Positions 2,380 to 33,303 of a stretch of 42,991 nt of DNA are shown piece by piece. Position 1 is the first letter of the stretch; each line of letters begins with the position of its first letter. This DNA is from Bacillota bacterium (lineage in GTDB: Bacteria > Bacillota > Clostridia > Oscillospirales > Oscillospiraceae). The stretch spans positions 1-42,991 of the forward strand of contig JAETOJ010000023.1 in the NCBI GenBank assembly GCA_021768085.1, in the 5' to 3' direction. Both the position numbers and the translations under genes were made by a program. The notes under the pieces were generated by a model, which was not told where the DNA came from, did no database searches, and saw only the letters and a program-made list of their open reading frames with translations.

Positions 2380-3486
2380 TCAGAAGCCAGATTCGTCCAG
2401 CTTCCCTTGGTTCCGGGCCAGCTCCCGCAGCCGCTGGTTGCCCTCGTTCATCTCCCCGAAGTCCTCCACCGGGCAGAGCACCCGGGCGCACCCCTCCATC
2501 AGGGCGGCGGCCCGCCGGAATGCCTCCTCCCCGATGGGGCGGAAGGGCTTCTCTGAGACGGTCTCCACCGCCAGCGCCCGGGCCACGGGGTAGTCCAGGT
2601 CGTTCTCCCCCAGCACCCCGGCGGCAAAGGGGGTTCCCTGCCGCTGTAAGCGGCGGTACACCGGGATGCCCGCCCCGCCGCCACCGATGACAAACACCTC
2701 CGGCGGGCCGGAGGCCGCCTCCAGCTCCAGGGAGCCGTACAGGGCGTTGTAGCTGCCCCGGGCAGCGCCGTACAGATCCCTGATGTATTCCGCGGTGAAG
2801 ATCTCCTCCGGCGGCCCCTGCCGTGCGATGGAGTCCCCCCGGACGCACACCACCCAGTCGCTGATCTTCTGGGCCAGATCCAGCTCGTGGAGGGACATCA
2901 CCACCGCCAGGTTCCGGGATCGCACCATGTCCTTCAAGATGGCCAGCAGCTCCAGCTTGTGGCGGATATCCAGGAAGGAGGTGGGCTCGTCCAGCACCAG
3001 CACCTCCGGCTCCTGGTTCAGCGCCCGGGCCAGCAGCACCCGCTGGCGCTGCCCGTCGCTGATCCGGGAGAAGTCCCGATCCGCCAGATCGGCGGCGTGC
3101 ACCAGCTCCAGGCTCCTGGCCGTCTTGTCCCGATCCTCCTGAGTCAGGATGCCCAGCCGCCCGGTGTAGGGATACCGCCCGGTGGCCGCCACGTCGAAGC
3201 AGGTCATCAGCTCCGGGCGGATGTGGGCGGTCATGAGCACGCTGAGCTTCCGGGCCACGTCCCGCTCGCTGAGGGCCGCCATGTCCTCCCCGCCCAGGTA
3301 CACCGCCCCCCCGATGAGGGGGAGCTGCCGGATGAGGCTTTTCAGGATGGTGGACTTGCCCGCCCCGTTGGGGCCGATGAGGGTCATGATCCGCCCCCGG
3401 CGCAGCTCCAGCTCAATGCCGCTGATGAGGGCCTTTTTGTGGTAGCCTACGCTGAGGCGCTCCGTGCGCAAACGCGGTTCGCTCAT
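2380..3486 (-). CDS. ABC transporter ATPase (FecE/BtuD type) with extra C-terminal domain
   Basis: The energising subunit of an iron-siderophore/cobalamin-family importer, 368 residues. Residues 1-255 are a standard ABC ATPase: Walker A GPNGAGKST (38-46), signature ISDGQ (142-146), Walker B VLVLDE (162-167) and the H-loop histidine 200. Residues ~262-368 are an added domain opening with VFVIGGGGAGIPVYRR, which looks like a nucleotide-binding Rossmann turn and is absent from ordinary 250-residue homologues. The ATG overlaps the permease stop by four bases, so the two are translationally coupled. An in-frame extension upstream into the permease gene was rejected. It is the last gene of the riboswitch-led operon. 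Substrate is inferred from context only (tetrapyrrole, corrinoid or metal complex). Confidence 0.85.
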   Translation of the reverse strand: MSEPRLRTERLSVGYHKKALISGIELELRRGRIMTLIGPNGAGKSTILKSLIRQLPLIGGAVYLGGEDMAALSERDVARKLSVLMTAHIRPELMTCFDVAATGRYPYTGRLGILTQEDRDKTARSLELVHAADLADRDFSRISDGQRQRVLLARALNQEPEVLVLDEPTSFLDIRHKLELLAILKDMVRSRNLAVVMSLHELDLAQKISDWVVCVRGDSIARQGPPEEIFTAEYIRDLYGAARGSYNALYGSLELEAASGPPEVFVIGGGGAGIPVYRRLQRQGTPFAAGVLGENDLDYPVARALAVETVSEKPFRPIGEEAFRRAAALMEGCARVLCPVEDFGEMNEGNQRLRELARNQGKLDESGF

Positions 3487-4496
3487 GCCCGGGCCCCCTT
3501 CCCGCCCCGCCGGGAGGCCATGAGGTAGAGCACCACCGGCGCGCCGAACACAGCGGTGACGGAGCTGATGGACATATCCCGGGGGGCAAAAGCGGTGCGG
3601 GCGATGAGGTCGCAGAACAGGCAGAAGGCCGCGCCCCCCAAAAAGCAGCCCGGTATGATCACGATGGGCTTGGCGGTGCGGAACAGCCCCTTCACCAGGT
3701 GGGGCACGGCGATGCCCACGAAGGAGATGGGCCCGGCGAAGGCGGTGACGCAGGCGGACAGCAGGCTGGACAGCAGGATCAGCTCCGCCCGGAACCGCTT
3801 GATGTTCACCCCCATGCTCTGGGCGTACACCTCCCCCATCTGGTAGGCCCCGATGGGCTTGGACAGCAGGAAGGTGAGCACCAGGGCCACCCCCACCACC
3901 CAGGCCATGAGCCGCACGTTTTCCCAGGAGGTGCCGGAGAAGCTGCCCAGCGACCAGTTGTGGAGGTTGACGATGTTGGAGTCGTCGCTGAAGGTGATGA
4001 CAAAGTCGGTGATGGCGGAGCAGATGTTGCCGATCATGATACCGCACACCACCAGCATGGACATATTCCGCACCCGCCGGGACATGAGCAGCACAAAGCC
4101 CATGGAGATCATGGAGCCGGCGAAGGCCCCCGCCACCATGGCCATGGAGCTGATGACGATGCCCCGGCTGAGGAAGGTCACCATCACCAGGGCCACCGTC
4201 AGCTTAGCTCCGGAGGAGATGCCCAGCACGAAGGGCCCGGCGATGGGGTTGGCGAAAAAGGTCTGGAGCAGGAAGCCGGACACCGACAGCGCCCCGCCCA
4301 GGATGGCGGCGGCCAGCAGCCGGGGCAGGCGCATCCCCCAGATGATGCCGCTCTCAGACGGCTTTAGCAGGGCGGAAAATACCTCCTCCAGCGGTATGCT
4401 CACGCTGCCGGCGCTGATGTTCCACACCAGCAGCGCCAGCACCAGCGCCGTCAACAGCGCCAGCCCCGCGGCGCAGCGCGGTCGGTTGTCTTTCAT
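3483..4496 (-). CDS. ABC transporter permease, FecCD/BtuC family
   Basis: An integral membrane permease of 337 residues with about ten hydrophobic segments and the family features WGMRLPRLLAAAILGGALS near residues 53-71 and a GPISFVGIAVPH motif in the C-terminal third. Such proteins form homodimers that pass siderophores, haem or cobalamin to the cytoplasm with an ATPase and a binding protein. It starts 13 bases after the binding-protein gene and overlaps the ATPase gene, so it is a middle gene of the operon. Being the only permease here, it presumably acts as a homodimer. Fold and role are clear from sequence; the ligand is not. Confidence 0.9.
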   Translation of the reverse strand: MKDNRPRCAAGLALLTALVLALLVWNISAGSVSIPLEEVFSALLKPSESGIIWGMRLPRLLAAAILGGALSVSGFLLQTFFANPIAGPFVLGISSGAKLTVALVMVTFLSRGIVISSMAMVAGAFAGSMISMGFVLLMSRRVRNMSMLVVCGIMIGNICSAITDFVITFSDDSNIVNLHNWSLGSFSGTSWENVRLMAWVVGVALVLTFLLSKPIGAYQMGEVYAQSMGVNIKRFRAELILLSSLLSACVTAFAGPISFVGIAVPHLVKGLFRTAKPIVIIPGCFLGGAAFCLFCDLIARTAFAPRDMSISSVTAVFGAPVVLYLMASRRGGKGARA

Positions 4497-4509
4497 AGTC
4501 TCCCCTCCG

Positions 4510-5691
4510 TCACGTCAGCCGGTAGAGGTAGGTCAGCGACCCGTCCGCCCCATGGCCCTGCGTCAGAATGTTATGGATATCCAGCATCATCTCGCCCACG
4601 GACTGGGACTCCTGGAACATACTTTTCCCGGTGCACCACACATTGCCCTCCCGCACCGCCTTGAAGTCGGCCAAAGGGGCGCTTTTGGCGATGAGCTGCT
4701 CCAGTGTCTCCAGATTGCCCTCGATGGTGCTGTTGTAGATGAGCACGTCCGCATCCTTTGCCTCGTGGTAGAAGCTCTCCATCTGGATGTTCATGGTGGA
4801 CAGGGCGTTCTCCCCCTCCCCCAGGTTCCGGGGCAGATAGACCCCACCCGCCAGGTCGATGGCCTTGGCGATGTAGTCCCCCGACTTGCGCACCGTCACC
4901 ATGCCGTTGGCGGTGACGGCGAAGAAGGCCACCGTCTTGCCGGTGCTCTCCTGCTCCAAGACGGGCTCCAGCCTTTCAAGCTGCCCGTCGTAGTACGCCT
5001 TGGCCTCCTCCTCCCGGTTGAGCAAAGCGCCGTACAGCTTCACCCACTCCATCCGGCCCAGGGGGTGGCTCTCATAGCTGGAGCGCTCCACCAGCACGGG
5101 GATACCCAGCCGTTCCAGTTGCTCCTTCACCTCGGGGTTGTGGTAGATCATGGTGGACTCCAGGGCCATGCCGCAGCCGCTGGCCTGGAGCAGCTCGTAG
5201 TCCGGGGCGGAGTATTTCCCGGCGTACACCATCCGGCCCGCCTCCATGGCCTCCTTCACCTCGGGGAGATACCAGCCCGGCGCGTCGGTGCCCACCAAGG
5301 TGACGGCGTCCATGGCGTCCAGCTTCCGGAAGCAGTCCATGGCGGCGGTGGCCTGTAAGTAGATGTTCTGGATGGGCTGGCGCAGGACGGTGACGTCCTC
5401 CGGCATATCCAGGAAGGGCGCGCCGTCCACCCCCTCGGGCACCACCAGGTAGGTCTCGGTGTCGATGGTGACCCGCTTGAAATCCCCATAATAGTCCACG
5501 GAAAAGCTCTGGGCGTACTCCAATTCCATATGCTCGTCCCAGGACACGTCGTTCCAGCTCCTGACGGCGGGATCCGCCCCCTGGGAGGGCTCCGGGGTGG
5601 GCGGCGGGTCGGTCTGGGCCCCACCAGGGGCGCAGGCGCACAGGGCCAGCGCCAGGGCCAGCAGGGGTACAACAATTTTCCACAATTTCAT
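4510..5691 (-). CDS. Substrate-binding lipoprotein of the ABC importer
   Basis: A 393-residue extracellular binding protein anchored by a lipid: hydrophobic signal followed by the lipobox LCAC near residues 17-20, then a Thr/Pro-rich linker. The mature part has the two-lobe layout of class III (siderophore/B12/haem) binding proteins, with GTDAPGWYLPEV in the first lobe and a helical connection before GKTVAFFAV. It lies 10 bases after the small lipoprotein gene and 13 bases before the permease. The operon is under a cobalamin riboswitch, so a corrinoid, cobalt or tetrapyrrole ligand is inferred; iron-siderophore cannot be excluded. Confidence 0.85.
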   Translation of the reverse strand: MKLWKIVVPLLALALALCACAPGGAQTDPPPTPEPSQGADPAVRSWNDVSWDEHMELEYAQSFSVDYYGDFKRVTIDTETYLVVPEGVDGAPFLDMPEDVTVLRQPIQNIYLQATAAMDCFRKLDAMDAVTLVGTDAPGWYLPEVKEAMEAGRMVYAGKYSAPDYELLQASGCGMALESTMIYHNPEVKEQLERLGIPVLVERSSYESHPLGRMEWVKLYGALLNREEEAKAYYDGQLERLEPVLEQESTGKTVAFFAVTANGMVTVRKSGDYIAKAIDLAGGVYLPRNLGEGENALSTMNIQMESFYHEAKDADVLIYNSTIEGNLETLEQLIAKSAPLADFKAVREGNVWCTGKSMFQESQSVGEMMLDIHNILTQGHGADGSLTYLYRLT

Positions 5692-5701
5692 AGGCGTCCC
5701 C

Positions 5702-6328
5702 TTACTGCTTCGTCAGGCTGGCGGAGTCAAATGTCACGGTGTACTCCACCTCATGGGGCTCGCTCATGGCCACCGTGTCGGCGATGACGGCCAGGGGCGT
5801 GTCAAAGGCGGCCACCGGGATCTCAAAGGTGGAGTTGCTGCCCGGGGCGCTGATCAGATCGTAGCGCACGCCGTTTACCTTCATATAGTCAAAGTTGGGG
5901 CTGCTCCAGACGATGGTGGCGTAAAACTGCCCGCCTGAGCAGCGCAGCCTGGCCGGAGACTGGATGGCGGCCCGTCCAGTGCCCCCCGACAGGGTGACCT
6001 TGGCGGTGTAGCTCCCGTCCTCCGGGCCGGAGGGGGTGGGCTCCGGGGTGGGGGCCGTTGTGGGCTCCGGCGTGGGCTTGGCGGTGGGCTTTGCCGTGGG
6101 TTCCGGGGTGGCGGTGGGCTCCGGCGCGGGTGTAGCGGTGGGCTCGGTTGTGGCGGTGACCTCCGGGGCGGGTGTGGCGGTGGGCTCGGTTGTGGCAGCG
6201 GGCTGGGACTGCTCCGGAGCGAGACTGGGGGTCTGGGTGGGCTCCGGCGGCCGTTCCGCAGCGCAGCCGGCCAGCACCGTCAGGGTCAGCGCCAGCGCCG
6301 CCAGACAGGCCATCGTGTTCTGTTTCAT
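5702..6328 (-). CDS. Lipoprotein with Thr-Pro-Glu linker and a beta domain shared with the chelatase
   Basis: A 208-residue surface lipoprotein of unknown function. The signal peptide ends in the lipobox LAGC (Cys22). Residues ~25-97 are a low-complexity linker of repeated TPEPTATPAPE units, typical of stalks that cross the cell wall. Residues ~98-205 form a beta-rich domain (DGSYTAKVTLSGG..., IVWSSPNFDYMKVNG, TFEIPVAAFDTPLAV). By eye this matches the C-terminus of the neighbouring chelatase in order and spacing: DGxY, FDxM, TFxxxVAxxDxPL. The layout is reminiscent of NEAT-type haem-binding domains, but I cannot confirm that. Position between chelatase and binding protein suggests it hands over or presents the ligand. 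AGGAGGA precedes the ATG at 6328. Confidence 0.75.
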   Translation of the reverse strand: MKQNTMACLAALALTLTVLAGCAAERPPEPTQTPSLAPEQSQPAATTEPTATPAPEVTATTEPTATPAPEPTATPEPTAKPTAKPTPEPTTAPTPEPTPSGPEDGSYTAKVTLSGGTGRAAIQSPARLRCSGGQFYATIVWSSPNFDYMKVNGVRYDLISAPGSNSTFEIPVAAFDTPLAVIADTVAMSEPHEVEYTVTFDSASLTKQ

Positions 6329-6352
6329 CTAATTCTCCTCCTCATCAAAAGA

Positions 6353-6383
6353 AGCGCCGCGGAGCGCTTGGCTCCGCGGCGCT
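6353..6383 (-). terminator. Intercistronic hairpin, terminator-like
   Basis: A perfect 13-base stem (AGCGCCGCGGAGC and complement) with a 5-base loop lies between the chelatase stop and the lipoprotein ribosome site. On the minus strand it is followed by TCTTTT. It may partially terminate or stabilise mRNA ends, lowering transporter expression relative to the chelatase. Confidence 0.6.
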
Positions 6384-6392
6384 CAGGGAACG

Positions 6393-8261
6393 TTATTTCG
6401 CCTTGGCGGTGTCCGCCTGGAAGGTCAGGGTGCGGTCATACCACTTGTCGGTGTTTACGCTATGGGCGGCATAGTCCAGGGGCTTGTCCAGCTCGGCCAC
6501 GGCCAGGGTGAAGGTGGTCTTGCCCGTGCCGTCCTTCACACCGTCCACCACGCCCTCCTGGGCCAGGTTGGCGGCGGAGGCGGTGCCCACGAACATCTTG
6601 TCGAAGCTCTCGCTGCCCAGCATTAGCTCGGCGGTCATCTTGCCGTCCTTCACGGTGAGGGTGCAGCTGTCAATCTTGAACATGGACTGCTCGCACTCCA
6701 CGTTGATAGCGTACACGCCGTCGGCCAGCGCCTCTTTGCCGTCGGGGTTCTCGGGGTTGGGCTCCACGTCGATGCCGGTGTCGGCCAGGGGCTTGGCGTC
6801 CTTGGCGTGGGCGGCCAGCAGATCCCGGATGGCCTGGAGCTCGCCCAGGCCCTTCACCTCGCACTGAACCTCCAGCCCGGCGGCGGAGAACACGGAGTAC
6901 CAGGACTGGGGATCCTTCTCATCGGCCATGTCGTTGTTGGCGTGATCCCCCGCCACGATCATCATGGGGCGCAGCACCACTTTGGTGTACCCGGCCTTCT
7001 TCACCAGCTCCACCAGCTCCTGGGCGGTGGGGGATGCCTCCACGGTGCCGATGAAGTGGTTCTTGTGGCCCTTGTCGGTGAGCACCGTCTGCATCTTGGC
7101 ATAAATGCCGTTGGAGGCGGCCTCGGTGCCGTGGCCCATCCAGCACACGGCGGTCTTGCCGTCCTTAGCCAGATCCTGGGTGGCGGCCACCATGGCGTCG
7201 GCCACCTTGGCGAAGTCGTCGTCGGAGGTGAGCAGCGGCGCTCCGATCTTGATGGACTGGAAGCTGCCCTCATACTTCTCCAGGGCCTTCACCAGATCGC
7301 CGTACTCCCAACCGTTCATCAGGTGGGTGGGCTGCACCAGCAGCTCCTCCACGCCGTTCTTCTTGGCCCGTTCCAGGGCCTCCTTCACGTTGTCGATGAG
7401 CTCGCCGTCCCGGCGGTACACGTGCTCGATGATGATGTCGGCGGTGAAGCCCCGGCGGACGTCATAGTCCGGGAACGCCTTGTCCAGGTCGTCCTCGATG
7501 GCCTTGATGGTCAGCACCCGGTTGTCGTTGAAGCTGGTGCCGAAGCTCACCACCAGCAGCTCCTTTTTGCCGATGCCGTCCTGGTTACGGGGGTTATCCT
7601 TGGAGGCGTCGCCGGTGGCGGCGTCGGCCATGTAGCGGCACAGGATGGTGGACACCTCTGCCCGAGTGGCGGTGCCGTTGGGGTTGAGCTTCCGGTTCTG
7701 ATCCCCGGTGATGAACTCGCTGGCCACGGCCCAGTTCATGTAGCCCTTGGCCCAATCGCTCACTTCCGCGGCATCGGGATAGGCGGATGTCTCGTCCTTG
7801 CGGCTTTTCAGGGCATCCTTGCCCACCTGGCGGGCGGCAAACTCGCAGATGATCTTGGCGATCTCCTGGCGCTTGGCGGTGCCGTTGGGGTCAAAGGTGT
7901 CGTTGTTGGCGGTCTTGCCGTTGACGATCTTCTGGGAGAAAGCCCAGACTACCGCGTCCCGGTAAGCGTCCTCCTCCTTCACGTCCTGGAAGGGGTTGTC
8001 CACGCCCTTCACGTCGGGGGAGCCGGCCAGACGGTACAGGGCTGTCACCAGCTCCGCCCGGGTCATGGGCTCGTTGGAGCCAAAGGTGGTGTCGGTTCTG
8101 CCGTCCACCAGGCCCTTCTCCGTCACCTCGGCCACATACTCTTTGGCCCAGTCGGGCACGTCGGTGTACTTGGCCGCGTCGGCGGCGAAGGCGGCGCCGG
8201 TCAGTCCTGCCGCCAGCGCCAGGGCCAGCAGCAGCGCGGTGAGCTTACTCAGTTTTCTCAT
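6393..8261 (-). CDS. Secreted SLH-anchored CbiK-type cobaltochelatase
   Basis: A 622-residue modular protein. Residues 1-27 are a signal peptide ending AAFA. Three S-layer homology repeats follow at ~30-75, 87-142 and 160-212, which normally bind pyruvylated cell-wall polymer. Residues ~233-490 are a complete CbiK domain, the class II chelatase that inserts cobalt into sirohydrochlorin. The expected metal-site residues are visible: His377 (MGHGTE), Glu408 (GTVEASP) and His440 (GDHANND). Residues ~514-617 are a beta domain like that of the next gene's lipoprotein. CbiK is usually a cytoplasmic protein of about 260 residues; periplasmic CbiK is known in Desulfovibrio. AAGGAGG precedes the ATG at 8261. 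It heads a cobalamin-riboswitch operon. Whether it inserts cobalt, removes metal or only binds tetrapyrrole outside the cell is unknown. Confidence 0.88.
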   Translation of the reverse strand: MRKLSKLTALLLALALAAGLTGAAFAADAAKYTDVPDWAKEYVAEVTEKGLVDGRTDTTFGSNEPMTRAELVTALYRLAGSPDVKGVDNPFQDVKEEDAYRDAVVWAFSQKIVNGKTANNDTFDPNGTAKRQEIAKIICEFAARQVGKDALKSRKDETSAYPDAAEVSDWAKGYMNWAVASEFITGDQNRKLNPNGTATRAEVSTILCRYMADAATGDASKDNPRNQDGIGKKELLVVSFGTSFNDNRVLTIKAIEDDLDKAFPDYDVRRGFTADIIIEHVYRRDGELIDNVKEALERAKKNGVEELLVQPTHLMNGWEYGDLVKALEKYEGSFQSIKIGAPLLTSDDDFAKVADAMVAATQDLAKDGKTAVCWMGHGTEAASNGIYAKMQTVLTDKGHKNHFIGTVEASPTAQELVELVKKAGYTKVVLRPMMIVAGDHANNDMADEKDPQSWYSVFSAAGLEVQCEVKGLGELQAIRDLLAAHAKDAKPLADTGIDVEPNPENPDGKEALADGVYAINVECEQSMFKIDSCTLTVKDGKMTAELMLGSESFDKMFVGTASAANLAQEGVVDGVKDGTGKTTFTLAVAELDKPLDYAAHSVNTDKWYDRTLTFQADTAKAK

Positions 8262-8294
8262 GTCTCGTTTTCCTCCTTACGGTCTCATTTGTTC

Positions 8295-8460
8295 TAAGAA
8301 CCTGTATTCACAGCCGAAGATACGGGCTGGGCGAGGGATTTTTTCGCCAGACAAGGCGCATTTTCGCAGGAATACGTTGTGTATTTCAAGAAAATGCAAC
8401 GCAGTATGGCGGAAAAAGGCCCGTCCAGACGGCGTTTGAGGTTGTGAATACAGGTTCTAA
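8295..8460. mobile_element. MITE-like palindromic element
   Basis: A perfect 15-base terminal inverted repeat (AGAACCTGTATTCAC at 8297-8311, complement at 8444-8458) encloses about 132 bases. The inner parts also pair imperfectly (TTTTTTCGCCAGACAAGGCGC against GGCGGAAAAA), so the whole element can fold into one long hairpin. It encodes no protein of its own. It sits in the 5' leader between the riboswitch terminator and the chelatase ribosome site. Confidence 0.65.
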
Positions 8461-8513
8461 ATTTCCCGACGGGCTGAACCCGCCGCAGGAAACCGGATCG
8501 GACGGGGCGCCGT

Positions 8514-8549
8514 AAAAAGGAAACGCCCCGGGCCGAAGGCCTCGGGGCG
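8514..8549 (-). terminator. Expression-platform terminator of the minus-strand cobalamin riboswitch
   Basis: On the minus strand a GC-rich stem (CGCCCCGAGGCC / GGCCCGGGGCG, loop TTC) is followed by TTTCCTTTTT. It lies just after the aptamer and before the chelatase leader, so ligand binding would be expected to favour premature termination. Confidence 0.75.
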
Positions 8550-8589
8550 CGGCAATGCCTCACGGACGGAAAACCGCCGTGAGGCCGAA

Positions 8590-8748
8590 TCAAAAGCGCA
8601 CTCTTGGTTTCGGCAGAATGCAGCCAAACCGCCACATATCTGACTTATCCCCTCACAAAGGGGGCATCACAGTGACCGACTCGCAGGGACTCTCACCCTA
8701 TTCTGTGCGCCGCCACAGGCGGCCGCGGTTGGCTTTTAGCTATTCAAT
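8590..8748 (-). promoter_or_regulatory. Cobalamin riboswitch controlling the chelatase/transporter operon
   Basis: Read on the minus strand the region has the conserved cobalamin-aptamer blocks in order: GGGTGAGAGTCCCT, GGTCACTGTGATGCC and the B12-box-like AAGTCAGATATGTGGC (8646-8631). It matches, block for block, the second copy on the plus strand at 9968-10135. It is followed by a rho-independent terminator, so high cobalamin should switch off the surface chelatase and ABC importer. Confidence 0.85.
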
Positions 8749-8756
8749 TTATCTAC

Positions 8757-8785
8757 AGGCTAACACGGCGGGACGGATTTGTCAA
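8757..8785 (-). promoter_or_regulatory. Probable promoter of the riboswitch-chelatase transcript
   Basis: Minus-strand TTGACA (8785-8780) is followed after 17 bases by TAGCCT (8762-8757), immediately before the aptamer. The -35 box is perfect and the -10 box is weak. It lies 28 bases beyond the cbiG stop. Confidence 0.5.
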
Positions 8786-8812: not shown

Positions 8813-9841
8813 CTATCCTGGAAACCGGGCGATCCAGTCCTCCTCCGCCACCGCCACGGTGACGCCGTTCCGGATGGTTTTGCCCACTACCAGCCGCCGG
8901 GCGCCCATTCTGGCGGCCCGCTCGCACACGTTGTCCACCCCCGTGACCCGCAGCACCCGCTGGGAATGGGCAAAGTCCCCCGCCAGCGCCGCCAGCTCCT
9001 GGGCGCTGTAAAAGGCCGCGGGCCAGCCCTGGGCGGCGCAGTAGTCCAGCAGGCCCTTCTCGTCCCGCTTTAGATCGATGGAGGCCACGCAGTTCACCGC
9101 CCTGGGGTGGATGTCATGCTCCTCCAGCACCTGCTCCACCGCCGCCCGGATGGCCGCCTCGCTTGTCCCCCGCCGGCAGCCCAGGCCCAGGTGGAGCACC
9201 GGGGGAACCAGCAGCAGCGTCTCCCGGAAGGGGACCTTTTTCCGCCAGGAGATGCAGATGCCCACCGCTCCGCTGTCTCCCCGCTCCGTGCCGGGGGGCA
9301 GCTCCCCCTCCACGGGAAAGTCGCAGCACAGGGGCACCGGACCCTCCAAAATGGCGGCGGACACCGCCTTGGCCGCCTTCATGTCGTCGAGAAACAGTCC
9401 CTGGCGGGCCGCCCAGGCGTCCACGGAAAATTTCCCGTTGACGTCGGTGGCGGTGGTGACCACCGGCTCCGCCTCCAGCCCCCGGGCCAGCCGCAGGGCC
9501 AGGGCGTTGGCCCCGCCAATGTGGCCGGACAACAGGGGGATGACAAACTGCCCCAGCTCGTCCACGCACAGCACCGCCGGGTCGGTGCGCTTGTCCCGCA
9601 CCCAGGGGGCGATGGAGCGCACGGCGATGCCCGCCGCCCCCACGAACACCAGGGCGTCCCCCCAGGCGAACAGCGGGCCAGTGGCCTGGGCACAGGGGGA
9701 GCCCAGCGCCTCAAACGCCCCGCTCGCGTACCGCTCCGGGGCCAGGCACCGGCACTCGTCCCCCGGGCCCCGCAGGCAGTCCCGGATCCGCAGGGCCGTC
9801 TCCCGTCCCCGGCGGCTGTAGGCAAATATGGCCAGCTTCAT
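8813..9841 (-). CDS. cbiG: Cobalt-precorrin-5A hydrolase
   Basis: A 342-residue enzyme that opens the delta-lactone of cobalt-precorrin-5A and releases acetaldehyde, giving cobalt-precorrin-5B in the anaerobic pathway. The N-terminal CbiG domain starts MKLAIFAYSRRG and includes FVGAAGIAVRSIAP and LLSGHIGGAN. The C-terminal domain is marked by LGLGCRRGTS and TGVDNVCERAA. It is separated from the main operon and transcribed away from it, with its own promoter and no riboswitch between that promoter and the gene. Its transcript would run into the minus-strand riboswitch. The ATG at 9841 has an AAAGGGGG ribosome site. Confidence 0.92.
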   Translation of the reverse strand: MKLAIFAYSRRGRETALRIRDCLRGPGDECRCLAPERYASGAFEALGSPCAQATGPLFAWGDALVFVGAAGIAVRSIAPWVRDKRTDPAVLCVDELGQFVIPLLSGHIGGANALALRLARGLEAEPVVTTATDVNGKFSVDAWAARQGLFLDDMKAAKAVSAAILEGPVPLCCDFPVEGELPPGTERGDSGAVGICISWRKKVPFRETLLLVPPVLHLGLGCRRGTSEAAIRAAVEQVLEEHDIHPRAVNCVASIDLKRDEKGLLDYCAAQGWPAAFYSAQELAALAGDFAHSQRVLRVTGVDNVCERAARMGARRLVVGKTIRNGVTVAVAEEDWIARFPG

Positions 9842-9967: not shown

Positions 9968-10135
9968 GGCCAACTCAATAGGATACCAGCCGCGGCCGCG
10001 TCAGCGGCGCATGGAATGGGGTGAGAGTCCCCGCGAGTCGGTCACTGTGATGCCCTCCCCGAAGGGATAAGTCAGATACATGGCGGTCTGGAGCTTTTCT
10101 GCCGAAACCGGAAGCACAGCAAGCGGTTCGTCCCG
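9968..10135 (+). promoter_or_regulatory. Cobalamin riboswitch controlling the cbi/cob operon
   Basis: Conserved blocks of the cobalamin aptamer appear in order: GGGGTGAGAGTCCCC, GGTCACTGTGATGCC (10040-10054) and the B12-box-like AAGTCAGATACATGGC (10069-10084). A terminator follows at 10158. The copy at 8590-8748 on the other strand shares nearly all these blocks. It should repress the 17-gene biosynthetic operon when cobalamin is plentiful. Confidence 0.87.
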
Positions 10136-10157
10136 CCCTCCTGGGCGGGGTTGGTAC

Positions 10158-10187
10158 GCGCCCCTGGTGAAGCAGGGGCGCTTTTTT
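10158..10187 (+). terminator. Riboswitch expression-platform terminator
   Basis: A perfect 9-base stem GCGCCCCTG / CAGGGGCGC with a 6-base loop is followed by six T residues. It ends 20 bases before the cbiD start and is the natural off-switch of the upstream aptamer. Confidence 0.85.
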
Positions 10188-10207
10188 CATGGAAGGAGGC
10201 GGCGGCC

Positions 10208-11353
10208 GTGGAGGGCGGCGGGTTCGCGCATTATGTGCGCAGCGGGCAGTCCCTGCTGCGCTGCGGCTATACCACGGGCACCTGCGCGGCGCTGGCGGCG
10301 GCGGGGGCGGTGCGGCTGCTGCTGACGGGGAAGGCTCCGGAGGCTCTCTCCCTCACCACACCCAAGGGGCTGGAGGTGGCCGTTCCCCCGGCGGGATCGG
10401 AGCTGCCGGAGCCTGGGCGGCGGGCCCGGTGCGCCGTGCGCAAGGACGCGGGGGACGATTACGACGTGACGGACGGGATGCTGATCTGGGCGGAGGTAAC
10501 CCGCAGTCCCCGGCCCGGAGTGCGGATCGACGGCGGCGAGGGGGTGGGCCGGGTGACCAAGCCCGGCCTGGATCAGAGCGTGGGGGCCGCCGCCATCAAC
10601 CGGGTGCCCCGGCGGATGATCGAGGAACAGGTACAGGCCGCGTGCGCCCAGCTGGGCTGCGCCGACGGCATGGACGTCGACATCTCCATCCCCGGCGGGG
10701 CGGAGCGGGCGGCCAAGACCTTCAACCCGGTGATGGGAGTGGTGGGCGGCCTGTCCATCCTGGGCACCTCCGGCATTGTGGAGCCCATGAGCGAGCAGGC
10801 CATTGTGGACACCATCGCCCTCCAGATGGGGCAGGCGGCGGTGAGCTCTACGGATCTGATCCTCACCCCCGGCAACTACGGGGAGGATTTTCTCAAAAGC
10901 ACCGGCCTGGACAACCTGGGCGTGCCGGTGGTGAAATACTCCAACTTTTTAGGGGACGCGCTGGACATCGCCGCGGGGTCGGGGTTCCAGCGGGTGCTGG
11001 TGGCGGGCCACATCGGCAAGCTGGTGAAGGCGGCGGGTGGGATCATGAACACCCACTCCAAATACGCCGACTGCCGGACGGAGCTGTTCTGCGCCCACGC
11101 GGCGCTATGCGGGGCCAATGTCGAATTGTGCCGGAAGCTGATGGGCGCCGCCACCACCGACGCCTGCCTGGAGCTGCTGGACGGGGCGGGACTGCGGGAG
11201 CCGGTGCTGGACAGCCTGCTGGCCGCCATCCAGCTCCACCTGGAGCGGCGGGCGGCGGGGGCCTATGCCGTGGGCGCGGTGATCTTTTCCAACGTATACG
11301 GCCCCCTGGGCCAGACTGATAAAGCAACCGAGATTTTGGAGGGATGGAAGTGA
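10208..11353 (+). CDS. cbiD: Cobalt-precorrin-5B C1-methyltransferase
   Basis: A 381-residue SAM-dependent enzyme that methylates C1 of cobalt-precorrin-5B. The N-terminus carries the family's RCGYTTGTCAALAA motif, followed by TPGNYGEDF and a GHIGKLVKAAGG segment. The open frame runs upstream through the terminator hairpin, so the start is placed at GTG 10208, which has GGAAGGAGG eight bases before it. It is first gene of the main operon and overlaps cbiL by ten bases. Confidence 0.92.
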   Translation: MEGGGFAHYVRSGQSLLRCGYTTGTCAALAAAGAVRLLLTGKAPEALSLTTPKGLEVAVPPAGSELPEPGRRARCAVRKDAGDDYDVTDGMLIWAEVTRSPRPGVRIDGGEGVGRVTKPGLDQSVGAAAINRVPRRMIEEQVQAACAQLGCADGMDVDISIPGGAERAAKTFNPVMGVVGGLSILGTSGIVEPMSEQAIVDTIALQMGQAAVSSTDLILTPGNYGEDFLKSTGLDNLGVPVVKYSNFLGDALDIAAGSGFQRVLVAGHIGKLVKAAGGIMNTHSKYADCRTELFCAHAALCGANVELCRKLMGAATTDACLELLDGAGLREPVLDSLLAAIQLHLERRAAGAYAVGAVIFSNVYGPLGQTDKATEILEGWK

Positions 11354-12045
11354 AGCGTGGCGTATGCTATGGCGTGGGGGTGGGCCCCGGCGACCCGGAG
11401 CTGATCACCCTGAAGGCAGTACATACTCTGGAGCGGTGCCCCGTCATCGCCGCCCCCCAGACCAGGAGCGGCGAGATGCTGGCCCTGGACATCGCCCGGG
11501 GGGCAGTGGATCTGACGGGTAAAACCATCCTGCCTCTGACCTTCACCATGTCCCAGGATCCGGCGGTGCTCCAGGCCTCCCACGAGGCGGCGGCGGACGC
11601 CATCCAGGCCCATCTGGATCGGGGGGAGGACGTGGCCATGCCCAACCTGGGCGACGTATCCATTTACGCCACCTGGGGGTATCTGATGGAGCTGCTGAAC
11701 CGCCGGGGCTATGAGACGGTGATGATCCCCGGCGTACCCAGCTTCTGCGCGGCGGCGGCCCGGCTGAACGCCACCCTGGTGCGCTGGGGCTCTCCCCTGC
11801 ACGTCATCCCGGTGGGCAAGGGGCCGGTGGCCCCACTCATGGAGCAGCCCGGGGGCAAGGTGCTGATGAAGGCGGGCCGGAGCCTGCCCGAGATCGTGGA
11901 GACGCTGAAAACCACCGGCCAGCTCTCCCGGGCGGCGCTGGTGGAGGACTGCGGCCTGCCCACCGAGCGGGTGTGGACGGATTTGGAACAGATTCCCGAG
12001 GATGTGGGCTATTTCGCCACCGTCCTCGTAAAGGAGGAGCAATAG
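11344..12045 (+). CDS. cbiL: Cobalt-precorrin-2 C20-methyltransferase
   Basis: A 233-residue tetrapyrrole methylase that adds the first methyl group after cobalt insertion. Residues near the N-terminus show the SAM-site loop GVGVGPGDPELITLKA. The middle has LGDVSIYATWGYL and a GVPSFCAAAARLN motif, both typical of the CbiL/CobI branch. The ATG is inside the end of cbiD; a GTG six bases later is a possible alternative start. AAGGAGGAGC near its end serves as the ribosome site of cbiF. Confidence 0.92.
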   Translation: MEVKRGVCYGVGVGPGDPELITLKAVHTLERCPVIAAPQTRSGEMLALDIARGAVDLTGKTILPLTFTMSQDPAVLQASHEAAADAIQAHLDRGEDVAMPNLGDVSIYATWGYLMELLNRRGYETVMIPGVPSFCAAAARLNATLVRWGSPLHVIPVGKGPVAPLMEQPGGKVLMKAGRSLPEIVETLKTTGQLSRAALVEDCGLPTERVWTDLEQIPEDVGYFATVLVKEEQ

Positions 12046-12046
12046 C

Positions 12047-12823
12047 ATGGTACATTTTGTGGGCGCCGGCCCCGGCGGGGCCGACCTCATCACCCTGCGG
12101 GGGGCGGAGCTGCTGAAGGGGACGGACGTGATCATCTACGCCGGGAGCCTGGTAAACCCCGCCCTGCTGGGGCTGGCAAAGGAGGGCTGTAGAATCTACA
12201 ACAGCGCTGAAATGACGCTGGAGCAGGTGCTGGACGTGATGAAGGAGGCCCACGCCCGCGGCCTGGATCTGGTGCGGCTGCACACCGGCGACCCCTGTCT
12301 GTACGGGGCCATCCGGGAGCAGATGGACGAGCTGGACAAGCGGAACATCCCCTGGGACGACACGCCGGGGGTGTCCAGCTTCTGCGGGGCGGCGGCGGCC
12401 CTGGGGGCGGAGTACACCCTCCCCGGGGTGAGCCAGACGGTGATCATCACCCGCATGGCGGGCCGCACCCCGGTGCCCGAGGGAGAAACCCTGGAGAAGC
12501 TGGCCTCCCACGGGGCGTCCATGGCCATCTTCCTGTCCGCCGGGATGCAGGAGCAGGTGCAAGCGGCGCTGCTGGCGGGCGGGGCGTACACCGCCGATAC
12601 CCCCGCCGCCATCGTCTACAAGGCCACCTGGCCGGAGGAGAAGATCGTCCGGTGCACCGTGGGCAATCTGGCCCAGGCTGGGAACGCGGCGGGCATCTGG
12701 AAAACCGCCATCATCCTGGTGGGAGGCTTCCTGGGGCAGAGCTACGAGCGCAGCAAGCTCTACGACCCCGCCTTCACCACCGAGTTCCGGCAGGGGACGG
12801 ATTCCCCCGCCCAGGGAGGGTAA
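12047..12823 (+). CDS. cbiF: Cobalt-precorrin-4 C11-methyltransferase
   Basis: A 258-residue tetrapyrrole methylase acting at C11. It opens with VHFVGAGPGGADLITLRG, the SAM-binding loop of the family, followed by LHTGDPCLYGAI and a TPGVSSFCGAAA motif that identify the CbiF/CobM branch. IAYKATWP-like sequence (IVYKATWPEEK) lies near residue 190. It follows cbiL by one base and precedes cbiH by four, within the operon. The C-terminal ~20 residues are a short tail beyond the core fold. Confidence 0.92.
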   Translation: MVHFVGAGPGGADLITLRGAELLKGTDVIIYAGSLVNPALLGLAKEGCRIYNSAEMTLEQVLDVMKEAHARGLDLVRLHTGDPCLYGAIREQMDELDKRNIPWDDTPGVSSFCGAAAALGAEYTLPGVSQTVIITRMAGRTPVPEGETLEKLASHGASMAIFLSAGMQEQVQAALLAGGAYTADTPAAIVYKATWPEEKIVRCTVGNLAQAGNAAGIWKTAIILVGGFLGQSYERSKLYDPAFTTEFRQGTDSPAQGG

Positions 12824-12827
12824 GGCC

Positions 12828-13574
12828 ATGGCAAAGCGGCTGTACGTGGTGGGGCTGGGCCCCGGCGATCAGAAGTATTTCACCGCCCAGGCCCGGGCGG
12901 CGCTGGAGGACGCCCAGGTGCTGTGCGGCTACACGGTGTACGTGGAGCTGGTGAAGGGGCTGTACCCGGACAAGGACAGCTACACCACCCCCATGACGAA
13001 GGAGATCGACCGCTGCCGCTGGGCGCTGGAGACGGCGGACAGCGGCAGAACCGTGGCCCTGGTGTGCAGCGGGGACGCGGGGGTGTACGGCATGGCGGGG
13101 CCCGTCCTCCAGCTGGCCCCCCGGTGGCCGGACGTGGAGGTGGAGGTGGTGCCGGGGGTGACCTCCGCCCTGTCCGGAGCGGCCCTGCTGGGGGCCCCCA
13201 TCGGCCACGATTTCTGCGTCATCTCCCTGTCCGACCTGCTCACGCCCTGGGAGGTCATTGAGAACCGCCTGCGCTGCGCGGCGGCGGGGGACTTCTCTAT
13301 GGTGATCTACAACCCCGCCTCCCACAAGCGCCCGGACTATCTGCAACGGGCGTGTGACATCCTGCTGGACGCCGGGGTGAGCCCCAATACGGTGTGCGGC
13401 TACGTCCGCAACACAGGCCGGGCGGGCGAGGAGGCCCGGGTGCTCACCCTGGGCGAGCTGCGAGATACCCAATTGGATATGTTCTCCACCGCCTTCATTG
13501 GCTCGTCCACCACCCTGGCGGAGGGCGGTAGGATGATCACCCCCCGGGGCTACGAGAAGAAGCAGGGCCTATGA
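12828..13574 (+). CDS. cbiH: Cobalt-precorrin-3 C17-methyltransferase (ring contraction)
   Basis: A 248-residue tetrapyrrole methylase that methylates C17 and drives ring contraction, giving cobalt-precorrin-4. Motifs are VVGLGPGDQKYFT at the N-terminus, VCSGDAGVYGMAG, the EVVPGVTSALSGAALLGAP loop and IYNPASHKRPDY. All are diagnostic of CbiH/CobJ. There is no ferredoxin-like extension. The ATG has GGAGGG just upstream, and its stop overlaps the cbiJ start (ATGA). Confidence 0.92.
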   Translation: MAKRLYVVGLGPGDQKYFTAQARAALEDAQVLCGYTVYVELVKGLYPDKDSYTTPMTKEIDRCRWALETADSGRTVALVCSGDAGVYGMAGPVLQLAPRWPDVEVEVVPGVTSALSGAALLGAPIGHDFCVISLSDLLTPWEVIENRLRCAAAGDFSMVIYNPASHKRPDYLQRACDILLDAGVSPNTVCGYVRNTGRAGEEARVLTLGELRDTQLDMFSTAFIGSSTTLAEGGRMITPRGYEKKQGL

Positions 13575-14314
13575 ACGTCGTACTATTCAGCGGCACCACC
13601 GAGGGGCGGCGGCTGTCCCGGGCCCTGGCGGAGCTGGGGGCCGGGGTGACGGTGTGCGTGGCCACGCAGTACGGCCGGGAGGAGCAGGGGGAAGCCCCCG
13701 GCGTCACGGTGCTGTCCGGCCGGATGGACGAGGGGGCGATGGCCCGGACGGTGGCGGGGGCGGATCTGTGCGTGGACGCCACCCACCCCTACGCCGTCCA
13801 GGCCAGCGAAACCATCCGGGCCGCCTGCGAGGAGACGGACACGCCCCTTTTGCGGCTTCTTCGGGCGGCGTGCCCCGTCCCGGCGGGGGCGGAGGTGTTC
13901 GCCTCCGCGCGGTCGGCGGCGGACTGGCTGAAGGGGACGCAGGGAAACATCCTGCTCACCACCGGGGCCAAGGAGCTGGCCCTGTTCGCCCCCCTGGGCG
14001 GGGAGCGGCTCTACCCCCGGGTGCTGCCACTGGCCTCCAGCCTGGAAGCCTGTGCCGCCGCCGGGGTGCCCAGCAGCCACATCCTGGCCCTCCAGGGCCC
14101 CTTTTCCCGGGAACTGAACGAGGCCCTGATCCGGCAGTACCACATCGCCTGGCTGGTAACCAAGGACGGGGGAAAGGCCGGGGGCTTTGAGGAGAAGGCG
14201 CTGGCGGCCCGGGCCGCCGGGGCGAAGCTGATCCTGATCCGCCGCCCCCAGGAGGACGGGCTGAGCTATGGGGACGTGCTACAACGATGCAGGGAGATGA
14301 TGGGATGCGGGTGA
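13571..14314 (+). CDS. cbiJ: Cobalt-precorrin-6A reductase
   Basis: A 247-residue NAD(P)H-dependent reductase of the macrocycle. The start VVLFSGTTEGRRLSRAL holds the GTxEGR signature, followed by VDATHPYAVQASETIRAAC, also conserved in CbiJ/CobK. A late motif, TKDGGKAGGFEEKALAA, completes the match. It is coupled to cbiH by a four-base overlap and overlaps the start of the cbiE-cbiT fusion by ten bases. Confidence 0.9.
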   Translation: MNVVLFSGTTEGRRLSRALAELGAGVTVCVATQYGREEQGEAPGVTVLSGRMDEGAMARTVAGADLCVDATHPYAVQASETIRAACEETDTPLLRLLRAACPVPAGAEVFASARSAADWLKGTQGNILLTTGAKELALFAPLGGERLYPRVLPLASSLEACAAAGVPSSHILALQGPFSRELNEALIRQYHIAWLVTKDGGKAGGFEEKALAARAAGAKLILIRRPQEDGLSYGDVLQRCREMMGCG

Positions 14315-15504
14315 CGTTGGCCTCGTTGGGCGGGGGCTGGGAGAACACCATGACGGCGGAGTGCGCCGCCGCCCTGAAAAGCGCCGGGTGCATTCTTGGG
14401 GCCCAGCGGCTGCTGGAGCACCTGCCCCAGGGGTGCACGGACAACCGGATCGCCGCCGTAAAGCCCCGGGAGCTGCTGGACGGCATCCTGCGCCAGAGCT
14501 GCGACTGCGCGGTGGTATACAGCGGGGACGCCGGGTTCTATTCCGGGGCCCGGGGGCTGCTGCCCCTGCTGGAGGAGCGGCAGATCCCCGCCCGGGTGCT
14601 GCCGGGTGTGTCCAGCGTGCAGCTGCTGTCCGCCCGGCTGGCCCGGCCCTGGCAGGACTGGAATTTGGTGTCCGCCCACGGCACGGACTGCGACCCGATG
14701 GCGGCGGTGTCCGCCGGACGGCCCGCCTTTTTCCTCACCGGCGGGGCGCTGGGGCCGGGGGAGATCTGCCGTCGGCTGACCCAGGCGGGGCTGGGGGCGC
14801 TGGCCGTCACTGTGGGGGAGAACCTGTCCGCGCCCGAGGAGCGCGTCACCTCCGGCACTGCGGCGGAGCTGGCGGGGCGGGGGTTCCCCTCTCTGTCCGT
14901 GCTGCTGGCGGAGGCCGCCCCTCGGTACGGGCCCCGCTGTCCCGGCATCCCGGACGGGGAATTCATCCGGGGGGACGTGCCCATGACCAAGCAGGAGGTG
15001 CGCTCCGCCGCCCTGGCCAAGCTGGCCGTCCGGCCCGCCGACACCCTGTGGGACGTGGGGGCGGGCACGGGCAGCGTCAGCGTGGAGCTGGCCCTGGCCG
15101 CGCCCCAGGGGCGGGTGTTCGCCGTGGAGTGTGAACAGGACGCTTGCGCCCTCATTTCCGAAAACAAACAGAAATTTTCCACCTGGAATTTACAATTAGT
15201 AGAGGGTCGAGCCCCCCAAGCCCTCCGGGATCTGCCCGCCCCGGACGGGGTGTTCCTCGGCGGCACCAAGGGGGAGCTGGACGCCATTGTGGGGGCGGCG
15301 CTGGACAAAAACCCCAACGCCCGGATCTGCGTGTCCGCCATCGCACTGGAGACGCTGTCCGCCGCCACCGCGGCCCTGACCGGCCGGGGGCTGGAGGCTC
15401 AGGTCACCCAGATCGCCGTCAGCCGCACCAAACCGGCGGGCAGGCTCCATCTGCTCATGGCCAACAACCCCACCTTCCTGATCGCGGGGAACTGCCATGG
15501 TTGA
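14305..15504 (+). CDS. cbiET: CbiE-CbiT fusion: C5,C15-methyltransferase (decarboxylating)
   Basis: A 399-residue fusion of the two enzymes that methylate cobalt-precorrin-7 at C5 (CbiE) and C15 with decarboxylation of the C12 acetate (CbiT), equivalent to aerobic CobL. CbiE occupies about residues 1-210, with VYSGDAGFYSGARGLL and LPGVSSVQLLSARL. CbiT begins at Met227 (MTKQEVRSAALAKL), followed by the SAM-site motif DVGAGTGSVSVELA. An upstream in-frame ATG at 14287 is possible, but AGGGA nine bases before 14305 supports the shorter form. Confidence 0.9.
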   Translation: MRVTLASLGGGWENTMTAECAAALKSAGCILGAQRLLEHLPQGCTDNRIAAVKPRELLDGILRQSCDCAVVYSGDAGFYSGARGLLPLLEERQIPARVLPGVSSVQLLSARLARPWQDWNLVSAHGTDCDPMAAVSAGRPAFFLTGGALGPGEICRRLTQAGLGALAVTVGENLSAPEERVTSGTAAELAGRGFPSLSVLLAEAAPRYGPRCPGIPDGEFIRGDVPMTKQEVRSAALAKLAVRPADTLWDVGAGTGSVSVELALAAPQGRVFAVECEQDACALISENKQKFSTWNLQLVEGRAPQALRDLPAPDGVFLGGTKGELDAIVGAALDKNPNARICVSAIALETLSAATAALTGRGLEAQVTQIAVSRTKPAGRLHLLMANNPTFLIAGNCHG

Positions 15505-17930: not shown

Positions 17931-17932
17931 GC

Positions 17933-20155: not shown

Positions 20156-20283
20156 CCCGGAGCGCGGCGGGCCGGGTCGCTGTGTGCCGGTGGCACACGC
20201 TCAGCCACGACCGAGTCGAAGACGAGACCGTCCCGCCCTACCAGGGCTGCGCTTGTTTGGAAGATGCTTATTTAGGAGAGGCG

Positions 20284-30947: not shown

Positions 30948-30953
30948 ATAAAC

Positions 30954-30994: not shown

Positions 30995-31007
30995 TTACTG
31001 AAACAGC

Positions 31008-31036: not shown

Positions 31037-31081
31037 GATGGTGGAATTTAGTAGATTTTGAAACAACTTGAGGTGTCAAAC

Positions 31082-33297: not shown

Positions 33298-33303
33298 TTT
33301 GCT

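What the first reader, a model, noticed from the sequence alone, without database searches (positions are those of the whole stretch)
2380..8785. Cobalamin-riboswitch operon pairing a cell-surface cobaltochelatase with an ABC importer
Seen: a B12-type riboswitch leads an operon encoding a protein with signal peptide, three SLH repeats, a full CbiK domain with its metal-site residues (His377, Glu408, His440) and an extra beta domain, plus a lipoprotein and a complete ABC importer. Known: CbiK normally inserts cobalt into sirohydrochlorin in the cytoplasm, although periplasmic CbiK exists in Desulfovibrio. Inferred: a B12-responsive surface system that metallates, demetallates or captures tetrapyrroles outside the wall and imports them. 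The window's biosynthetic operon lacks another cobaltochelatase and the early tetrapyrrole genes, which fits import of a precursor.
Basis: partly seen in the sequence, partly recalled or inferred. Interest (0 to 1): 0.78.

Follow-up and report, generated by a model that had tools for sequence, protein, structure and literature searches.

The report
Surface cobalt chelatase feeding B12 synthesis
A bacterium in whose genome key early enzymes for making the vitamin B12 ring could not be found seems to carry the cobalt-inserting enzyme on its outer surface, next to an importer, which suggests that it finishes B12 from a ring taken up from outside rather than made by itself.

Summary
The operon is real: window 2380-8261(-) encodes a secreted SLH-CbiK protein, a lipoprotein, a binding lipoprotein and a FecCD-type ABC importer, behind a cobalamin-riboswitch-like element (8596-8733, -). 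I add four results.

(1) The extra beta domain and the lipoprotein are NEAT-like, and the binding protein is nearest to heme binders, so the layout resembles an Isd heme relay built around a chelatase.

(2) In the genome I found no other CbiK or CbiX, no HemC, no uroporphyrinogen-III methyltransferase (SUMT) and no precorrin-2 dehydrogenase. The window holds a corrin pathway from CbiL to adenosylcobamide.

(3) Similar cassettes occur across the class, often inside cbi operons; a cobalamin riboswitch scores over threshold in 19 of 20 such loci scanned.

(4) Of 99 CbiD-bearing genomes, only-secreted CbiK occurs in 15 of 25 without HemC and 2 of 74 with it. Phylogeny-aware tests are too weak to confirm this.

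Best reading: cobalt is inserted outside the membrane into scavenged sirohydrochlorin, and the product is imported for CbiL. Secretion signals, gene absence, regulation and linkage rest on sequence; substrate, direction and import are inferred. It would supply an uptake route for predicted 'precursor salvagers'.

The parts
8596..8733 (-). cobalamin (AdoCbl-type) riboswitch-like aptamer in front of the operon
   Evidence: RF01482 12.7 bits, below gathering 50; conserved core in 8 aligned elements, 11 of 39 predicted pairs with a change on both sides; RF00174 over threshold at such modules in other genomes
8525..8540 (-). terminator-like hairpin with T-rich tail after the aptamer
   Evidence: 2 overlapping found, mean 0.7 in shuffles, so weak; a transcription-termination switch is inferred
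6393..8261 (-). P0001: secreted SLH-CbiK-NEAT-like protein, 622 aa
7587..8177 (-). SLH repeats (surface anchor)
   Evidence: PF00395 89.1 bits; S-layer chain 6cwc over residues 24-204
6795..7565 (-). CbiK class II chelatase domain with His377, Glu408, His440
   Evidence: PF06180 248.8 bits; 1qgo, 9b86, 2xvx; residues conserved
6396..6740 (-). NEAT-like domain A of P0001
   Evidence: profile hits 4h8q/4h8p (Iron Transport-associated domain protein) at E 1.2e-7 and 1.5e-7; Pfam NEAT 22.5 bits, below cut-off 32.8
5702..6328 (-). P0002: lipoprotein with NEAT-like domain B (about 5705-6034)
   Evidence: Pfam NEAT 22.0 bits, below cut-off
4510..5691 (-). P0003: substrate-binding lipoprotein, nearest to Lmo2184 and IsdE
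   Evidence: PF01497 86 bits; profile A6 hits 5joq E 3.5e-11 and 2q8p (IsdE) E 3.8e-5
3483..4496 (-). P0004: FecCD permease
   Evidence: PF01032 256.9 bits; HmuU 4g1u 162.9 bits, BtuC 150.4 bits
2380..3486 (-). P0005: ATP-binding subunit with a C-terminal extension
   Evidence: PF00005 94.1 bits; best NCBIfam match corrinoid ATPase PRK09536 below its cut-off
8813..9841 (-). CbiG, cobalt-precorrin-5A hydrolase
9985..10125 (+). second riboswitch-like element, in front of cbiD
   Evidence: RF01482 20.8 bits, sub-threshold; aligned
10151..25011 (+). corrin and nucleotide-loop genes: cbiD, L, F, H, J, ET, A, cobT, U, S, a second cobU-like gene, cobC, cbiB, cobD, cbiP, cbiC (23816-24496), corrinoid adenosyltransferase (about 24494-25011)
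   Evidence: CbiD, CobT, CobC-type and CobD-type by Pfam; the four TP-methylases by PF00590; the other names by reading the translations

Best explanation
This is an entry port for B12 synthesis that starts from a scavenged macrocycle. When B12 is low, the riboswitch lets the operon be expressed. A wall-anchored protein binds an external sirohydrochlorin-type tetrapyrrole (NEAT-like domain) and its CbiK domain inserts cobalt outside the membrane. The cobalt-sirohydrochlorin passes to the lipoprotein NEAT-like domain, then to the heme-binder-like lipoprotein, and enters through the FecCD-type ABC importer. Inside, CbiL accepts it and the window's cbi/cob genes finish the cobamide. Shown by sequence: secretion signals, chelatase site residues, domain make-up, riboswitch context, linkage to cbi operons, and that three early enzymes (HemC, SUMT, precorrin-2 dehydrogenase) and any other class II chelatase were not found. 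Inferred: the ligand, the direction of the reaction, the order of hand-over, and the import.
For: Own genome: one CbiK, no HemC, five TP-methylases, read as CbiL/F/H/E and an RsmI on another contig, no SUMT over cut-off, no precorrin-2 dehydrogenase at E 1e-10, no CbiX beyond the CbiK cross-hit; pathway from CbiL on in the window. The same absences hold in four relatives with the cassette, G031, G040, G041 and G045. Class sample of 343 genomes: 99 CbiD+; only-secreted CbiK in 15 of 25 HemC- and 2 of 74 HemC+. In none of the 15 was SUMT, precorrin-2 dehydrogenase or a separate CbiX found. The 23 genomes counted with a secreted CbiK are all CbiD+. FecCD permease within 5 kb of a CbiK in 17 of 22 HemC- and 6 of 53 HemC+ CbiD+ genomes with a classed CbiK. 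Ten listed cassettes lie beside or inside cbi genes. RF00174 over gathering in 19 of 20 secreted-CbiK loci scanned. NEAT-like domains and IsdE-like binder.
Against: No biochemistry and no structure. HemA, HemB and HemD were not searched genome-wide, and the genome is 90.6% complete. On the CbiK tree, secretion changes only 4 times, and independent pairs cannot test the link with HemC loss (2 pairs on supported branches). Within secreted CbiKs, HemC and a second cytoplasmic CbiK go the same way in 3 or 4 of 5 pairs and never the other way, median p 0.125. G264 and G314 have HemC, SUMT and precorrin-2 dehydrogenase but only a secreted CbiK. Seven HemC- genomes have only a cytoplasmic CbiK. G121 and G129 have a secreted CbiK with no FecCD permease found within 5 kb. 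G042, with the cassette, has SUMT and precorrin-2 dehydrogenase without HemC. L008, one of seven named relatives of the CbiK part, has a secreted CbiK without the cassette beside it. NEAT-A lacks the first Tyr of the heme motif, so what it binds is open. External sirohydrochlorin was not documented here.
Confidence: 0.6

Rival explanations
1. It is a corrinoid importer of BtuFCD kind. The CbiK and NEAT-like proteins are corrinoid or cobalt binders that help capture finished corrinoids; chelation is not used.
For: Cobalamin riboswitch context; permease and ATPase have BtuC-type and corrinoid-ATPase models as best NCBIfam matches; Rodionov 2004 named the B12-regulated ABC genes with cbiK in Desulfovibrio btuCDF (PMC545781, passages).
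Against: BtuC and corrinoid-ATPase cut-offs are not met (209 of 334 and 208 of 537 bits). Binder nearest to Lmo2184 and IsdE, permease slightly nearer HmuU than BtuC. Metal-site residues kept in 25 of 25 secreted rows. A plain corrinoid importer does not explain why early enzymes and every other class II chelatase were not found while CbiL onward is kept.
Confidence: 0.17
2. It is a heme or metalloporphyrin scavenger: the surface CbiK removes iron or cobalt from a porphyrin (reverse chelation), and the importer takes up metal or porphyrin.
For: Isd-like layout with NEAT-like domains and IsdE-like binder; a CbiK homologue, FetB, is deposited as heme-binding (9b86); IhtB of Porphyromonas is called a putative ferrochelatase/reverse ferrochelatase (PMC13227078, passages).
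Against: Cobalamin riboswitches and placement among cbi genes. The 23 genomes counted with a secreted CbiK all have CbiD. NEAT-A has no Tyr at the usual heme-ligand position in 30 of 30 readable segments.
Confidence: 0.13
3. The port imports metal-free sirohydrochlorin or siroheme and CbiK serves outside mainly as a binding or demetallating protein; cobalt is inserted inside by an unknown enzyme or without one.
For: Five of seven HemC- genomes with cytoplasmic CbiK have a FecCD permease within 6.5 kb of it, so import before metallation is plausible in some layouts.
Against: In the 15 secreted-only HemC- genomes no other CbiK/CbiX was found, and the secreted enzyme keeps its metal site.
Confidence: 0.07

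Closest known systems
Periplasmic CbiK of Desulfovibrio vulgaris (2xvx-2xvz) and the B12-regulated cbiK-cbiL/btuCDF locus of Desulfovibrio
   Same: 2xvx ('chelatase, putative') matches P0001 at E 6.1e-28; that it is the periplasmic Desulfovibrio CbiK is recalled. One B12-element over cbiK-cbiL and an ABC importer (PMC545781, passages)
   Different: Those delta-proteobacteria have nearly complete sets for de novo synthesis according to that paper. No SLH anchor or NEAT-like domain that I know of (recalled). Here early enzymes and a second CbiK were not found
FetB / IhtB of Porphyromonas gingivalis
   Same: FetB structure 9b86 matches P0001 at E 1.9e-38. That FetB and IhtB are one protein, that 9b86 is from P. 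gingivalis, and that it lies beside ABC importer genes are recalled, not checked. P. gingivalis is noted to lack the steps to precorrin-2 (PMC6461909, passage)
   Different: Outer-membrane setting, discussed in PMC13227078 for heme (passages); no SLH or NEAT-like domain and no cobalamin riboswitch known to me (recalled, not tested)
Isd-type heme relay of Gram-positive bacteria (NEAT surface proteins, IsdE, FecCD importer; layout recalled)
   Same: NEAT-like surface and lipoprotein domains, IsdE-like binder, FecCD permease
   Different: Chelatase fused in, SLH instead of sortase anchor, cobalamin riboswitch, cbi context, first heme-motif Tyr absent (A) or mostly His (B)
Tetrapyrrole precursor salvagers (Shelton et al., PMC6461909)
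   Same: Corrin pathway kept, early steps missing, mostly Firmicutes (passages)
   Different: That work verified ALA dependence in three species. In the passages I read it names no importer for late precursors and no secreted chelatase

Membership tests
CbiK cobaltochelatase (class II) | PF06180 over curated cut-off | tested here: met
   248.8 bits, cut-off 26.2
CbiK cobaltochelatase (class II) | metal-site His/Glu/His | tested here: met
   His377 and His440 align with His145 and His207 of 1qgo (those two named in PMC7689651, passages), Glu408 with a Glu; conserved
CbiK cobaltochelatase (class II) | NCBIfam equivalog cut-off NF047852 | tested here: not met
   215.9 of 400 bits; so it is filed as a CbiK-family protein, not as the characterised equivalog
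CbiK cobaltochelatase (class II) | Co2+ insertion into sirohydrochlorin | not testable with these tools
   needs an assay
NEAT domain | PF05031 over curated cut-off | tested here: not met
   22.5 and 22.0 of 32.8 bits; Pfam NEAT at E up to 1 in 7 of 10 (A) and 6 of 10 (B) members
NEAT domain | profile similarity to solved NEAT domains | tested here: met
   A: 4h8q/4h8p E 1e-7. B: only 3sz6/3sik at E 0.011-0.014, weak alone
NEAT domain | YxxxY heme motif | tested here: not met
   A: second Tyr kept, first absent in 30 of 30 readable segments (31 in all); B: second Tyr in 23 of 23, first position His 19, Arg 2, Tyr 1, Val 1 (a few segments are duplicates; motif recalled)
BtuFCD cobalamin importer | BtuC and corrinoid-ATPase model cut-offs | tested here: not met
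   209.1 of 334 and 207.7 of 537 bits
Cobalamin riboswitch (RF00174/RF01482) | score over gathering | tested here: not met
   window elements sub-threshold, L002-L007 none; 19 of 20 more distant secreted-CbiK loci over it
Isd-type heme uptake | surface NEAT protein, NEAT lipoprotein, IsdE-like binder, FecCD importer | tested here: inconclusive
   layout matches in kind; heme binding and iron control not tested

The most novel reading that the evidence does not exclude
In many members of this class, one committed step of B12 synthesis, cobalt insertion, has been moved outside the cell and coupled to import. The pathway is thus split between organisms: neighbours make sirohydrochlorin, and the bearer metallates it on its surface and completes the vitamin. 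NEAT-like domains would here serve a non-heme tetrapyrrole, with His in place of the heme Tyr in the lipoprotein. The same logic could explain how Porphyromonas gingivalis uses its orphan corrin pathway.
Probability: 0.5. Interest if true: 0.88.

Novelty: new variant of a known kind. Interest (0 to 1): 0.76.

Why it matters
Predicted 'tetrapyrrole precursor salvagers' keep a corrin pathway without the enzymes that make its starting ring, and how they obtain a late macrocycle has lacked a gene-level candidate in what I read. This cassette is such a candidate, with a named first intracellular enzyme (CbiL) and a simple test: feed labelled sirohydrochlorin. It also gives a reason for extracytoplasmic CbiK proteins, and it would make sirohydrochlorin a traded metabolite in anaerobic communities.

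Tried and rejected
Structure prediction of the two NEAT-like domains: tool off, so the fold rests on profiles. Rfam at gathering on the window and on L002-L007 gave nothing; the element was then judged by alignment and by more distant loci. Local CbiM test: 0 of 25 secreted-CbiK loci against 7 of 67 cytoplasmic ones, p 0.18, local stretches only: inconclusive. Phylogeny-aware pairs: inconclusive. Paper searches for NEAT with cobalamin, SLH and chelatase (no paper with three of the four terms) and for cobaltochelatase with lipoprotein and cobalamin riboswitch (none) found no description; nor did the listings by title and abstract start. These cover only the open library.

Considered and rejected: an ordinary cytoplasmic CbiK (it has a signal peptide and SLH); a chance riboswitch motif (two in the window, conserved in relatives); loss of early genes by assembly gaps alone (own genome is 90.6% complete, but the same absences recur in many genomes).

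Rows dropped or set by hand: five genomes with only a CbiD paralog under 160 bits (G069, G201, G374, G284, G360) left out, 104 to 99; one sub-threshold HemC match (G210) left out, 86 to 85; CbiK matches under 40 bits not counted as CbiK, among them G047; G230 (partial CbiK, not CbiD+) not counted as secreted although the script flagged it; the second CbiK of G298 (L145) flagged secreted by the script, read as cytoplasmic by hand (if secreted, HemC+ secreted-only becomes 3 of 74). For the importer count the 30 short-flank loci L078-L107 were dropped; 29 of those 30 genomes have a wider locus in the count and G287, not CbiD+, has none. Some loci are short on one side (G332 159 bases, G156 491, G344 911, G135 938), so permease counts are lower bounds.


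Full report
What is there. On the minus strand, 2380-8261, five genes follow one another: P0001 (signal peptide, SLH repeats, CbiK domain, C-terminal beta domain), P0002 (lipoprotein), P0003 (binding lipoprotein), P0004 (FecCD permease) and P0005 (ATPase). A cobalamin-riboswitch-like element lies in front (8596-8733), followed by a terminator-like hairpin at 8525-8540. A second element stands before cbiD at 9985-10125 on the other strand. Rfam calls neither at its gathering score. Eight such elements from the window and relatives align with a nearly invariant core, and 11 of 39 predicted pairs show a change on both sides in at least one sequence. A search with the CbiK-NEAT part found seven named relatives. 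The gene order is seen whole in L004-L007, with the permease not resolved in my listing of L002 and a contig end in L003; L008 has a secreted CbiK without the cassette.

Domain make-up. The CbiK domain scores 248.8 bits and matches 1qgo (the anaerobic cobalt chelatase), 9b86 (heme-binding protein FetB) and 2xvx (a putative chelatase, the Desulfovibrio one by recall). The three metal-site residues are kept in 25 of 25 secreted rows and in 62, 61 and 62 of 62 cytoplasmic rows. The C-terminal domain of P0001 and the domain of P0002 are NEAT-like. A ten-row profile of the first finds NEAT structures 4h8q and 4h8p at E about 1e-7. Pfam NEAT matches 7 of 10 and 6 of 10 members; the window's own two lie below its cut-off. 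The second Tyr of the heme motif is kept in both. The first is absent in domain A (30 of 30 readable segments of 31) and is His in 19 of 23 segments of domain B; a few segments are duplicates. The binder profile is nearest to 5joq (Lmo2184; HupD-type by recall) and IsdE. The permease scores highest with HmuU, then BtuC.

What was not found in the genome. The window holds cbiD, L, F, H, J, ET, A, cobT, U, S, C, cbiB, cobD, cbiP, cbiC, an adenosyltransferase and cbiG, i.e. the route from cobalt-sirohydrochlorin to adenosylcobamide (several names by reading). In the whole genome (90.6% complete) this is the only CbiK. No HemC was found, no SUMT over the NCBIfam cut-off, no precorrin-2 dehydrogenase at E 1e-10 and no CbiX apart from the cross-hit of the CbiK itself. 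HemA, HemB, HemD and CbiM were not searched genome-wide. Four more cassette bearers, G031, G040, G041 and G045, show the same. Others differ. G043 and G044 have HemC, SUMT, precorrin-2 dehydrogenase and a second CbiK in a frame too short for a long leader. G042 has SUMT and precorrin-2 dehydrogenase on a small contig (4,761 bases; G+C like that of its cassette contig) but no HemC. G046 has three CbiKs and HemC. Five relatives placed in the same genus by the tool (G001, G006, G010, G011, G019) have a CbiK, read as cytoplasmic, beside a HemA-like ORF (by eye) and a precorrin-2 dehydrogenase, and only two TP-methylases.

How general it is. In a class sample of 343 genomes (own genome included; the class reads as Clostridia from record titles of relatives), CbiK, HemC and CbiD were searched in the same draw. 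Each CbiK was classed by its N-terminus (with two hand decisions told under Tried and rejected). Of 99 CbiD+ genomes, 25 lack HemC. Only-secreted CbiK: 15 of 25 without HemC, 2 of 74 with it (Fisher p 1.6e-9). Any secreted CbiK: 15 of 25 and 8 of 74. Cytoplasmic CbiK: 7 of 25 and 51 of 74. No CbiK counted: 3 of 25 and 21 of 74. The 23 genomes with a secreted CbiK are all CbiD+. None of the 25 has a precorrin-2 dehydrogenase at E 1e-10; one, G376, has SUMT; one, G116, has a CbiX of its own. A FecCD permease lies within 5 kb of a CbiK in 17 of 22 HemC- and 6 of 53 HemC+ CbiD+ genomes with a classed CbiK. In ten loci the cassette stands beside or inside cbi genes (L112, L114, L116, L119, L120, L124, L135, L137, L139, L144). 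RF00174 is over its gathering score in 19 of 20 secreted-CbiK loci scanned: 17 stand directly before the module, in L141 and L143 the switch stands before the larger cbi cluster, and L117 has none; L133 (G129) was not scanned.

Limits of that statistic. Species are related, and most secreted CbiKs fall in one part of the tree spread over many families. On the tree secretion changes 4 times and HemC state 14 times, and the independent-pairs test has 2 usable pairs. Among secreted CbiKs, HemC and a second cytoplasmic CbiK go together in 3 or 4 of 5 pairs and never apart, median p 0.125. The Fisher values therefore describe the sample and are not a corrected test. G264 and G314 are plain exceptions: HemC, SUMT and precorrin-2 dehydrogenase present, only a secreted CbiK.

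Mechanism. CbiL acts on cobalt-sirohydrochlorin (PMC8123684, passage), which is the product of CbiK. A genome that keeps CbiL onward, in which no route to sirohydrochlorin was found, and whose only class II chelatase lies outside the membrane beside an importer under B12 control, is most simply read as importing cobalt-sirohydrochlorin made on its own surface. That the ligand is sirohydrochlorin, that cobalt goes in rather than out, and the order surface protein, lipoprotein, binder, permease are inferences. Four (within 5 kb) or five (within 6.5 kb) of the seven HemC- genomes with a cytoplasmic CbiK also have a FecCD permease near it, so the importer may be the commoner element and the side of metallation may vary.

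Comparison with what is known. Rodionov et al. 2004 (passages) saw one B12-element over cbiK-cbiL and btuCDF in Desulfovibrio, so a regulated CbiK-importer unit is not new. A periplasmic CbiK there is known (recalled). IhtB of P. gingivalis is called a putative ferrochelatase/reverse ferrochelatase (passages); its kinship with CbiK and FetB is recalled. P. gingivalis is noted to lack the steps to precorrin-2 (passage). Shelton et al. defined tetrapyrrole precursor salvagers and verified ALA dependence in three species (passages); a review gives precorrin-2 salvagers as 0.6% of their set (passage). New here, as far as the open library searched shows: the SLH-CbiK-NEAT-like protein, the NEAT-like/IsdE-like relay with cobalamin riboswitches, and the link between an only-secreted CbiK and the absence of HemC, SUMT and precorrin-2 dehydrogenase.

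Verdict. It is a new variant built from known parts, with a strong genomic case and no biochemical proof.

Noticed in passing
window 8297-8458: A 162-base element with perfect 16-base inverted ends (AGAACCTGTATTCACA) sits between the terminator-like hairpin and the SLH-CbiK start; the end sequence has no other match in the window (up to 2 mismatches) and no exact match in the other fetched loci (L001 is the same place). It looks like a small mobile element in the leader.
   Followed up: partly
L108, L109, L110, L111, L121, L122: CbiK and a CbiL-like part in one protein without signal peptide, in HemC+ genomes, i.e. metallation joined to the next step, the opposite arrangement to the surface CbiK.
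   Followed up: partly
L128 and L129 (G188, G286): Two genomes of the same order with a cytoplasmic CbiK and cob genes in which HemC, SUMT, precorrin-2 dehydrogenase and a FecCD permease within 5 kb were not found; how they get the macrocycle is unexplained.
   Followed up: no
L126 and L125 (G046): Two secreted CbiKs with no importer seen nearby (L125 ends at a contig end) in a genome in which only three TP-methylases were found; a possible other use of secreted CbiK.
   Followed up: no
window 2380-2766 (C-terminal part of P0005): The ATPase carries an extension of about 125 residues, most of which aligns with the tail of the corrinoid ATPase model PRK09536; several relatives' ATPases are short and lack it.
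   Followed up: no
window 30579-40569: Region with a DNA-methyltransferase-like ORF, a very-short-patch-repair-like ORF, a relaxase-like and a recombinase-like ORF, read by eye from the ORF list: probably a mobile island with a restriction or methylation system.
   Followed up: no
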